Assembly: GCF_027587175.1 (NCBI RefSeq)
Contig: NZ_JAPCID010000016.1
Coordinates: forward strand, 62,001-126,000
Source: Solirubrobacter deserti
GTDB taxonomy: Bacteria > Actinomycetota > Thermoleophilia > Solirubrobacterales > Solirubrobacteraceae
DNA length: 64,000 nucleotides
Reading direction: 5' to 3'
In this document: positions 15,248 to 18,359 of the stretch, piece after piece
Numbering within the stretch: the stretch's first letter is position 1
Layout: the number at the start of each line of letters is the position of its first letter
Program-made: the position numbers and the translations under genes
The notes under the pieces: model-generated
Told to the model about the DNA's origin: nothing
The model's database searches: none
The model's input: only the letters and a program-made list of their open reading frames with translations

Positions 15248-15916
<669 letters not shown>

Positions 15917-15953: not shown

Positions 15954-18359
15954 GTGATCCGCGACGCCCTCGCGGCACTCCGTGCCCGTCGCGGCCGCAC
16001 GCTGCTGGCCGCGCTCGGCGTGCTCGCGGCGTCGCTCGTGGTGGGCACGAGCGTGACCGTCGGCTACTCGCTCGCGACCGGCTTCCAGCGCTCCGCCGAG
16101 CAGGCGCAGCTGCCCGACGTGATCGCGCGCTTCGACGAGCAGCCGCGGCGCCGGATCGACGCACGCGTGTCCGCTCTGCCGAACCTCGAGGCCCGCTCCT
16201 ACCGGTTCGAGGACCTCAACGAGGACCTCAGCGCCGGGCTCAACTCGACGGGCAAGGGCGCCGTGACCACGGTCTTCAACGGGCGCCGCGGCTACAAGGT
16301 CGTCGAGGGCCGCGACATCCGCGACGGCAGCACCGGCGAGGTCGTGGTCGAACGCGGCGTGGCGCGCGAATGGGACCTGCGGGTCGGGGACGACCTGTTC
16401 GTCGAGGAGCACGGCACGCTCCGCATCAGCGGCATCGCGGTCTCGCCCGACAACGTCGCGTTCCCGCTCGCCAGCACCGCGCGCGTCTACGTCACGCGCG
16501 CGCAGCACCGGCGCGTCGCGCCCAACGTCGCGCTGCTATGGCTCAGCGACCCCGATAAGGCCGACGTCACGCTCGCCCAGGCGCGCTCGGTCACGTTCGG
16601 CCTCGGCAAGCTCCAGTTCATCACCCGCACGGGCGTCGAGATCCTGCTCTCGCAGGCGGCGGGGATCGTGATCTCGCTGCTGATCGCGTTCTCGCTCGTC
16701 GCGCTGCTGGCCGCCGGCACGATGCTCGCCGCCAGCGCGCACGCCGACGTCCAGCGCCGCCTGACCGGGCTCGGCGTCCAGCGCGCGCTCGGCTTCGGCC
16801 CCGGGCGGATCGCCGCGCAGCAGGCGGTCGAGTCCGCGCTGGTCGCGCTCCCGGCCGCGCTCGCGGGGATCGCGATCGGCGCGCTGCTCGTCGCGCGCCC
16901 CGCGGCGGAGCTGATCGCCGCGCTCAACGAGCTCGGCCCGGGCGCCACGCTGCTCGGCCCGCTAACTCTGGCGGCGGCCGCCGTCGTCGCGCTCGTCGTC
17001 GCCGCCGCCACCTGGCCCGCGTGGCGCGCCGCGCGCCGCCCACCGGTCGAGATCCTGCGCGGCGGCGACCTCGCGAAGCGACCGCGCCGCCGCACGAGAG
17101 CGTCCGCCACGGCGCTCCAGCCGGCCGCGCGCGGCCCCCGTACGCGCGGAACATCCCCCTCTTTCGGCGAAGCCGGTTCCGCGCTTCGGGGGTCGCGCGC
17201 GGCCGGCCCCCACGGCGTCGGCGCCCCCACCGGGCGGCCGACGTCGAGCGACTCCGGCCCCCACGGCGGCGGCTCGCTCTTCGGCCTCGGGGTGCGGTTC
17301 GCCACCGCCGCGCGCGCCCGCTGGTTCGCCGCCGTCGCGACGATCGCCGTCTGCGCGGGCGTCGTCACGCTCATGCTCGCGCTCGCCAGCCTGCTCGAGC
17401 GCCTGCGCGAGGACCCCGGGACGGTCGGCAAGCGCTACCAGCTCGCGGTGCAGCTCGACTCGTCGCAGCTCGACGCCGCCCGCGCGCTGCCGGGCGTGGC
17501 CGACGTCGGCGAGCGCTACTCGATCGACGCCGCCGACTCGTTCCGCCTCGGCGAGCCGATCCGGCTCGTCGCCTATCCCGGCGACCACACCCGCTTCGAG
17601 AACCCGCCGCTCGCCGAGGGCCGCCGGATCGCGAACGCGAACGAGGTGGAGGTCGGCCTCGGCATGGCGGACGCGCTCGGCCTGCGCCCCGGGAGCACGC
17701 TCGCCGCCCAGATTCCCGACGGGGGCGAGGTGCGCTTCAAGGTCGCAGGCATCGTGCGCGCGCTCGAGAACGACGGCCGCATCGCGTGGATCCAGCCTGA
17801 CAAGCTGCTCGAGACGCGGCCGGACCTGACGCCCCAGGTCGTCGTGCGCCTGGAGCCCAACACGGACCCGGCGACCGTGACGCGGGAGCTGGTGAACCTC
17901 GGCGCCAGCCTCCAGCCCGTCGGCGCCGCGCAGACCGACAACGCCGCGTTCCTGGCCGTGCTCGCCGCGGTGCTGCGCGGCGTCGGCCTGGCGGTCGGCC
18001 TCGTGTGCCTGTACGCGCTCATCCAGGCGCTCACGGTCACCGCGCGCGAACGGCGCGGCGCCGTCGCGCTGCTGCGCGCCACCGGCGCCGACGCGACGAC
18101 CATCGGCCTCGTGCTCGCGGGCGTCGCCGTCGCCGTCGCCGTCCCGGCCGCGATCGCGGGCGTCGTGCTCGAGCTCACCGTCTTCGGCCCGCTCGTCTCG
18201 CGCCTGGCCGCGAGCTTCGCCTCCCTCCCGCTCGGCGCGTCCGCGGGTGAGATCGCGCTGGTCATCGGCGGCCTGCTCGCGCTCTCCGTGCTGGCGACCG
18301 CGTTCGTCGCGCGCCGCGTGATGAGCGAGCCGATCATCGCGGGGTTGCGCGAAGAATGA
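15954..18359 (+). CDS. FtsX-like ABC transporter permease
   Basis: An 801-residue permease with two FtsX-like halves. It has an N-terminal membrane helix (LLAALGVLAASLVVGTSVTV), a large extracytoplasmic domain (residues about 45-215), three helices (about 230-360), then a second unit beginning near residue 445 (FAAVATIAVCAGVVTLMLAL) with its own ectodomain and final helices. The GTG start at 15954 follows the ATPase gene, and the stop overlaps the metallophosphoesterase start (ATGA). The Arg/Pro/Gly-rich linker at about residues 380-440 is encoded by a long perfect-stem palindrome (separate entry) that looks inserted. Confidence 0.9.
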   Translation: MIRDALAALRARRGRTLLAALGVLAASLVVGTSVTVGYSLATGFQRSAEQAQLPDVIARFDEQPRRRIDARVSALPNLEARSYRFEDLNEDLSAGLNSTGKGAVTTVFNGRRGYKVVEGRDIRDGSTGEVVVERGVAREWDLRVGDDLFVEEHGTLRISGIAVSPDNVAFPLASTARVYVTRAQHRRVAPNVALLWLSDPDKADVTLAQARSVTFGLGKLQFITRTGVEILLSQAAGIVISLLIAFSLVALLAAGTMLAASAHADVQRRLTGLGVQRALGFGPGRIAAQQAVESALVALPAALAGIAIGALLVARPAAELIAALNELGPGATLLGPLTLAAAAVVALVVAAATWPAWRAARRPPVEILRGGDLAKRPRRRTRASATALQPAARGPRTRGTSPSFGEAGSALRGSRAAGPHGVGAPTGRPTSSDSGPHGGGSLFGLGVRFATAARARWFAAVATIAVCAGVVTLMLALASLLERLREDPGTVGKRYQLAVQLDSSQLDAARALPGVADVGERYSIDAADSFRLGEPIRLVAYPGDHTRFENPPLAEGRRIANANEVEVGLGMADALGLRPGSTLAAQIPDGGEVRFKVAGIVRALENDGRIAWIQPDKLLETRPDLTPQVVVRLEPNTDPATVTRELVNLGASLQPVGAAQTDNAAFLAVLAAVLRGVGLAVGLVCLYALIQALTVTARERRGAVALLRATGADATTIGLVLAGVAVAVAVPAAIAGVVLELTVFGPLVSRLAASFASLPLGASAGEIALVIGGLLALSVLATAFVARRVMSEPIIAGLREE
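17121..17206 (+). repeat. 86-bp nested palindrome inside the permease gene
   Basis: The outer arms 17121-17140 (CCGGCCGCGCGCGGCCCCCG) and 17187-17206 are complementary over 20 bp with one mismatch. After a 3/2-nt bulge come 9-bp perfect arms GCGCGGAAC (17144-17152) and GTTCCGCGC (17176-17184). The apical loop contains CGGC-GAA-GCCG (17165-17175). A 15-bp direct repeat, CCGGCCCCCACGGCG, follows at 17203 and 17254. It is read in frame as a low-complexity linker between the two permease halves, so it resembles a palindromic element tolerated within a coding sequence. Confidence 0.75.

What the first reader, a model, noticed from the sequence alone, without database searches (positions are those of the whole stretch)
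17121..17206. 86-bp nested palindrome read in frame within an FtsX-like permease gene
A 20-bp stem with one mismatch, a 9-bp perfect inner stem and a 4-bp apical stem occupy the linker between the two permease halves, adding an Arg/Pro/Gly-rich stretch. Linkers do not need such base pairing, so the DNA or RNA structure itself seems to be the selected or mobile unit, similar in concept to palindromic elements that insert into coding sequence. A 15-bp direct repeat follows.
Basis: partly seen in the sequence, partly recalled or inferred. Interest (0 to 1): 0.6.

Follow-up and report, generated by a model that had tools for sequence, protein, structure and literature searches.

The report
Gene-embedded mobile DNA palindromes in Solirubrobacter
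An 86-base DNA hairpin has been copied to at least eight places in this soil bacterium's genome, always where it is read through as protein without breaking the gene, much like the protein-coding "selfish" palindromes known from Rickettsia but in an unrelated phylum.

Summary
It is one of eight dispersed copies (82-100% identical) in this Solirubrobacter genome. Single-site relatives occur in two other species; a scan of 84,980 species found nothing convincing elsewhere. Orthologues of the permease, a LysR regulator, two glycosyltransferases and the operon junctions lack it; the LysR protein carries exactly 46 extra residues. The stem is kept by compensatory changes (12 of 36 pairs; 0/500 shuffles), while the bulge ACATCCCCC is invariant. 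The copies are read in several frames and both strands, so the nucleic acid, not the peptide, is the unit. All eight own copies lie in an open, in-frame context, four of them in mini-ORFs whose stop overlaps the next gene's start. A roughly 9-bp duplication flanks two, perhaps three copies. Best reading: a low-copy non-autonomous mobile palindrome of the Rickettsia-palindromic-element kind. The mobilising enzyme is unknown; the genome's three RAYT-like transposases sit beside different hairpins.

The parts
15248..15916 (+). ABC transporter ATPase, partner of the permease
   Evidence: Pfam ABC_tran, E 1.7e-33
15954..18359 (+). FtsX-like permease that hosts the element in the linker between its two FtsX domains
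   Evidence: Pfam FtsX PF02687, two stretches; orthologues in G001, G002, G003, G005 lack the insertion
17115..17120 (+). left border segment CTCCAG, shared with other copies (consensus CTCCAG)
   Evidence: flank comparison of 11 copies
17121..17140 (+). 5' outer arm of the hairpin
   Evidence: sequence; fold; compensatory changes across copies
17144..17152 (+). 5' inner arm GCGCGGAAC
17153..17164 (+). asymmetric unpaired bulge ATCCCCCTCTTT; ATCCCCC invariant in all 11 copies
17165..17175 (+). tip stem-loop CGGC-GAA-GCCG
17176..17184 (+). 3' inner arm GTTCCGCGC
17187..17206 (+). 3' outer arm of the hairpin
17207..17229 (+). 3' tail CCCCCACGGCGTCGGCGCCCCCA (family consensus about CCACCACGGCGCCGGCGCTC), present beside most copies
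17240..17272 (+). second degenerate copy of the 3' arm end and tail (source of the 15-bp direct repeat); copies L003, L006 and L007 likewise carry repeated tails
   Evidence: 51-nt direct repeat pair 17179/17230 at 71%; tail repeats of period 27 (L007) and 50 (L006); second tail at C40:86277-86311

Best explanation
This is one copy of a small, non-autonomous dispersed palindromic element confined, as far as searched, to the genus Solirubrobacter. The unit is a short left border (CTCCAG), an 81-88-nt asymmetric hairpin and a 3' tail (about CCACCACGGCGCCGGCGCTC), roughly 105-115 nt in all. It has been copied into gene linkers, gene starts and operon junctions. SHOWN: dispersal; absence in orthologues; a stem conserved by covariation; an invariant one-sided bulge; use in several reading frames and orientations; an open frame in all six directions; in-frame context at every own copy. 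INFERRED: the element moves as DNA (hairpin formed on a single strand or as a cruciform), is recognised through the bulge and tip by an unidentified enzyme acting in trans, and makes a target duplication of about 9 bp. Insertions that break a gene or its translational coupling are lost. Those that keep the frame in flexible linkers, N-termini or coupling mini-ORFs survive, and the peptide they add is a by-product.
For: Eight own copies at 82-100% identity by BLAST and by covariance model, the same eight in a second strain of the species, two in G001, one in S. phytolaccae (G003). Empty orthologous sites: permease linker 69 vs 14-34 aa; LysR 314 vs 268 aa, a clean 46-residue gap in four orthologues; PMT-type glycosyltransferase N-terminus 35 vs 6-7 aa in the three nearest relatives; glycosyltransferase linker 53 vs 18-35 aa; empty znu, permease and phosphoesterase junctions. 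Covariation: 96.1% of cells paired vs 86.7% shuffled, 12 pairs with changes on both sides vs 5.2, 0/500 shuffles. At least three sense frames plus one antisense coding insertion (L025). All six frames open in all 11 copies. Perfect 9-bp direct repeats at matching borders in L005 (CGCCGAGCC) and L008 (CGAGCAGGT), 8/9 in L003; 0 of 110 swapped flank pairs reach 9/9; permutation P = 0.0016. All four junction copies lie in a mini-ORF whose stop overlaps the next start.
Against: No mobilising enzyme or autonomous partner found. Copy number is low and the copies are diverged, so current mobility is not shown; both strains of the species carry the same sites. The duplication test used border windows chosen after seeing two sites, and with wide windows it is not significant (P = 0.18). 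Only 2-3 of 11 copies show a clear repeat. Linkers in this genus are GC-rich and vary in length anyway.
Confidence: 0.8

Rival explanations
1. The hairpin is a selected functional element: an mRNA structure that tunes translation, transcript stability or domain folding pauses, or a DNA protein-binding site. It is kept where it lands because it does something for the host gene or operon.
For: Stem kept by compensatory change, and the bulge ACATCCCCC invariant in 11 copies. The orthologous DUF2339 insertion in G001 and G003 keeps the hairpin, with two pairs changed on both sides between them. Copies sit in transcribed, coupled contexts, 8 of 10 independent sites in the same orientation as the gene.
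Against: Host genes are unrelated in function, and orthologues do without the hairpin. The orientation bias is not significant for 8 of 10 (two-sided binomial P about 0.11, own calculation). It is found on the antisense strand in L025 and L006.
Confidence: 0.12
2. The element is a REP-type sequence moved by one of the genome's Y1 (RAYT-like) transposases.
For: Three Y1_Tnp genes in the genome; REP/RAYT systems act on single-stranded hairpins (PMC3733652).
Against: Each of the three genes lies beside its own, different hairpin, of the type CCTAAAGAGGGAC-N-GTCCCTCTTTAGG; BLAST of the element against these loci gives only short chance matches. No GTAG or CGTC tag at the foot of the hairpin. Copy number 8 rather than hundreds. 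HUH-type movement would not leave a 9-bp duplication (general knowledge).
Confidence: 0.1
3. The hairpin pairing is kept without selection by replication template switching between the arms (quasipalindrome correction), so covariation says nothing about function or mobility.
For: The mechanism is documented and can maintain hairpins with compensatory-looking changes (PMC8794818, abstract). It would explain in-situ changes at the shared DUF2339 site.
Against: It does not explain dispersal to eight unrelated sites, the shared tail, or the invariant one-sided bulge, which arm-to-arm copying should tend to remove (inference). It can operate alongside the best explanation.
Confidence: 0.15
4. Ordinary GC-rich linker sequence that happens to be palindromic.
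For: Linkers in the genus are GC-rich, repetitive and variable in length.
Against: The same 86 nt recurs at seven other places and in other species; fold z-scores are -6.8 to -10.7 in the 11 copies.
Confidence: 0.01

Closest known systems
Rickettsia palindromic elements (RPE) and the Wolbachia equivalents
   Same: Short palindromes dispersed in one genus, found both between genes and in frame inside unrelated protein genes, tolerated in non-structured segments, absent from orthologues (PMC10969869, PMC2229807, PMC2996958).
   Different: RPEs are 105-150 bp, in dozens of copies and ten families. This element is 86 nt (about 110 with tail), GC-rich (about 80%), eight copies, has an invariant one-sided bulge and a repeated 3' tail, and occurs in Actinomycetota.
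Coding palindromes of Methanocaldococcus jannaschii (cited in PMC2996958 and PMC2229807)
   Same: Palindromic repeats with coding potential inside genes.
   Different: Archaeal; sequence relation not tested here.
Bacterial MITEs, in particular YPAL/RU-2 and ERIC
   Same: Non-autonomous, hairpin-forming, dispersed, sometimes fused in frame; YPAL/RU-2 has internal inverted repeats, is not AT-rich and duplicates its target (PMC2229807).
   Different: Not primarily intergenic; no parent transposon identified; no terminal inverted repeats at the borders.
REP/REPIN sequences with RAYT transposases
   Same: Palindromic, sometimes intragenic (PMC3733652); RAYT-like genes are present in the genome.
   Different: Larger, low copy, no GTAG/CGTC tag at the foot, and the resident RAYT-like genes adjoin other hairpins.

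Membership tests
Rickettsia-palindromic-element kind (protein-coding palindromes) | dispersed palindromic repeat within one genus | tested here: met
   8 copies in the genome, 2 in G001, 1 in S. phytolaccae, none convincing outside the genus
Rickettsia-palindromic-element kind (protein-coding palindromes) | in-frame insertion in unrelated protein genes, absent from orthologues | tested here: met
   FtsX, LysR, two glycosyltransferases, ABC transporter, DUF2339
Rickettsia-palindromic-element kind (protein-coding palindromes) | sequence homology to a described RPE family | not tested
   RPE sequences were not compared directly; the element's core pattern has no match in any Rickettsia among 84,980 species
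MITE | short, non-autonomous, forms a stable hairpin | tested here: met
MITE | target-site duplication | tested here: inconclusive
   9/9 at two sites, 8/9 at a third, border-restricted permutation P 0.0016 but post hoc; wide-window P 0.18
MITE | ends shared with an autonomous insertion sequence | tested here: not met
   search with the 3' half and tail in seven genomes gave the known copies and weak chance-like matches; no transposon end recognised among those examined
REP/RAYT | same hairpin flanks a Y1 transposase gene | tested here: not met
   three Y1 loci carry different hairpins
REP/RAYT | GTAG or CGTC tag at the hairpin foot | tested here: not met
   foot is CTCCAG followed by CCGG
known structured RNA (Rfam) | match to a covariance model at gathering score | tested here: not met
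   no match in the window

The most novel reading that the evidence does not exclude
A previously undescribed class of mobile DNA hairpin in Actinomycetota that persists only where it is translated, including in stop-start-coupled mini-ORFs between operon genes, is recognised through an invariant one-sided C-rich bulge by an unknown enzyme, and keeps its structure after insertion. It would thereby act as a recurrent source of new protein linkers and N-termini.
Probability: 0.3. Interest if true: 0.75.

Novelty: new variant of a known kind. Interest (0 to 1): 0.55.

Why it matters
Protein-coding palindromes were described from Rickettsia and Wolbachia, and once in an archaeon; that is as far as the papers held here show. 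An independent case in a free-living, GC-rich soil actinomycete shows that the phenomenon is not a peculiarity of reduced intracellular genomes. It also gives a tractable comparison: few copies, clear empty sites, sister species with and without each insertion, and an architecture (invariant bulge, covarying stem, tail) that points at a specific recognition event.

Tried and rejected
Ordinary linker: rejected by the dispersed copies. RAYT-linked REP: the three Y1 genes have other hairpins. Phage or plasmid origin: no match. Known RNA family: none. Contig breaks caused by unassembled copies: sampled contig ends are GC-rich low-complexity sequence, not element arms. The tail motif as an independent repeat family: close matches (at most one mismatch) occur only beside element copies, with one exception at C49; at two mismatches the counts exceed the control but look like chance coding matches. 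The Alphaproteobacteria MAG hit of the pattern scan (L110) has no hairpin and is chance. An AlphaFold model of the LysR protein had mean pLDDT 52.6, too low to place the insertion in a fold; residues 178-266, which span it, are all below 50, so it was not used.

Full report
OBSERVATION. The structure is far more stable than shuffled sequence (z about -8 as DNA and as RNA). One feature was missed: 12 nt (17153-17164, ATCCCCCTCTTT) are unpaired on the 5' side only, so the object is an asymmetric hairpin. The host is an 801-aa permease with two FtsX domains, next to its ABC ATPase.

IT IS A DISPERSED FAMILY. The 86 nt search of the window's own genome (G000, 7.09 Mb, 129 contigs) returned eight loci. 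A covariance model built from them found the same eight and no more, each matched on both strands because of the palindrome. A second strain of the species has the same eight. Two other species carry two (G001) and one (G003) copies, and G005 has one distant hairpin with the same core and architecture but a different outer stem (L027). G002 and G004 have none. Fifty-five other genomes of the family and order had none. An exact-core scan of 84,980 species returned Solirubrobacter sp. CPCC 204708, S. phytolaccae and one chance match. No match in IMG/VR, phage or plasmid records.

WHERE IT SITS. In this genome: (1) FtsX linker (window); (2) the substrate domain of a LysR regulator; (3) the N-terminus of a PMT-type glycosyltransferase; (4) a linker in a group-1 glycosyltransferase; (5-8) four operon junctions (ribokinase-like/phosphoesterase, two ABC permease genes, znuC/znuB-like, and one junction of unnamed genes). 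In G001: between the membrane and ATPase domains of an ABC transporter (antisense orientation) and in the N-terminal part of a DUF2339 protein. In G003: the same DUF2339 site.

EMPTY SITES. The permease linker is 69 aa here and 14, 21, 16 and 34 aa in G001, G005, G002 and G003. The LysR protein is 314 aa against 268 in two orthologues, with a single 46-residue gap opposite the element in all four aligned orthologues. The PMT-type glycosyltransferase starts with 35 aa where the three nearest relatives have 6-7. The junctions are empty in relatives. The DUF2339 site is empty in the window's own species. Several of these regions vary in length anyway, so the LysR case and the glycosyltransferase N-terminus are the cleanest.

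THE UNIT IS NUCLEIC ACID. The copies are read in at least three sense frames and once antisense. Across 11 copies 96.1% of 387 pair cells are standard pairs; 12 of 36 pairs show changes on both sides; no shuffle of 500 reaches any of the five measures. The bulge ACATCCCCC never varies. Cells count sequences and not events, and the copies are related. But the orthologous DUF2339 copies of G001 and G003 differ by two pairs changed on both sides, so pairing has apparently been kept after insertion, either by selection or by template switching between arms (PMC8794818). Each of the 11 copies is free of stops in all six frames (about 19% expected for one shuffled copy).

FRAME IS KEPT EVERYWHERE. 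Besides the in-gene copies, three junction copies (L003, L005, L007) lie in a mini-ORF that begins at a start codon overlapping or abutting the upstream stop and ends in a stop overlapping the next gene's start. The fourth (L006) lies in a mini-ORF with the same kind of end. Relatives without the element already have such mini-ORFs at some of these junctions (L134, L135), so the element was added to a coupling ORF. By chance each frame has about one chance in three; for the three strict cases that is about 0.04, so this is suggestive and not strong.

BORDERS. A left segment CTCCAG and a right tail CCACCACGGCG... accompany most copies. Perfect 9-bp direct repeats at matching distances flank L005 and L008, and 8/9 flanks L003. 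With border-restricted windows own flanks match better than swapped flanks (P = 0.0016), but the windows were set after seeing the first cases, and an unrestricted test gives P = 0.18. How these arise is unexplained.

MOBILISER. Three Y1_Tnp genes exist, each next to another kind of hairpin, so they are not evidence for moving this element. No autonomous partner was recognised.

WHAT IT IS LIKE. The closest kind is the Rickettsia palindromic element and its Wolbachia and M. jannaschii parallels (PMC10969869, PMC2229807, PMC2996958). It shares dispersal, in-frame coding insertion and tolerance by the host protein; it differs in size, composition, copy number, the invariant bulge, the tail and the phylum. 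The primary RPE papers are not held in the library (for one of them), so this comparison rests on reviews. Sequence homology to RPEs was not tested directly. YPAL/RU-2 is the nearest MITE by architecture.

CONFIDENCE. That this is a dispersed, in-frame palindromic element: very high. That it moved by a DNA transposition-like route with a target duplication of about 9 bp: moderate. Identity of the enzyme: unknown.

Noticed in passing
L031 1251-1281, L032 1994-2026, L033 1395-1427 and 2018-2050: The three RAYT-like (Y1_Tnp) genes lie beside perfect hairpins of the form CCTAAAGAGGGAC-N-GTCCCTCTTTAGG, on both sides of the gene at L033: apparently their own REP/TIR family, unrelated to the element.
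   Followed up: partly
L145 (C112 start), L171 (C22 end), L172 (C37 end), L210 (G003 C161 start): Contig ends carry AAGTCGGATCGTAG / AAGTCGGAGGCCAA, which look like leftover sequencing-adapter sequence (BGI/MGI type, from memory), so some contig ends in these assemblies are artefactual.
   Followed up: no
L026 (G003, S. phytolaccae), element at about 1145-1240: The element copy in the DUF2339 gene is one base shorter in its 5' arm than the G001 copy, which puts the upstream and downstream coding parts in different frames: a real frameshift or a sequencing error in the hairpin.
   Followed up: partly
L027 1515-1590 (G005): A hairpin with the same one-sided bulge and GGGC-GAA-GCCC tip but a different outer stem lies just after the stop of a sigma-factor-like gene; it has no second copy in G005. 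The core may be older than the dispersed family.
   Followed up: partly
L134, L135, L131 and own L003, L005, L007: Operon junctions in Solirubrobacter often contain short mini-ORFs whose start overlaps the upstream stop and whose stop overlaps or adjoins the downstream start, with or without the element; they look like translational-coupling relays.
   Followed up: partly
L054 end / L059 start (G005), L044 end / L040 start (G004): Assembly breaks fall exactly in the linkers of the glycosyltransferase (Gly/Ala-rich tandem repeats) and of the permease, the same linkers that carry the element in the window's species.
   Followed up: partly
L006 1373-1522 and 1576-1695: Two tandem arrays (period 50 and period 42) flank the L006 copy on its two sides; only the period-50 array contains the element's tail.
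   Followed up: no
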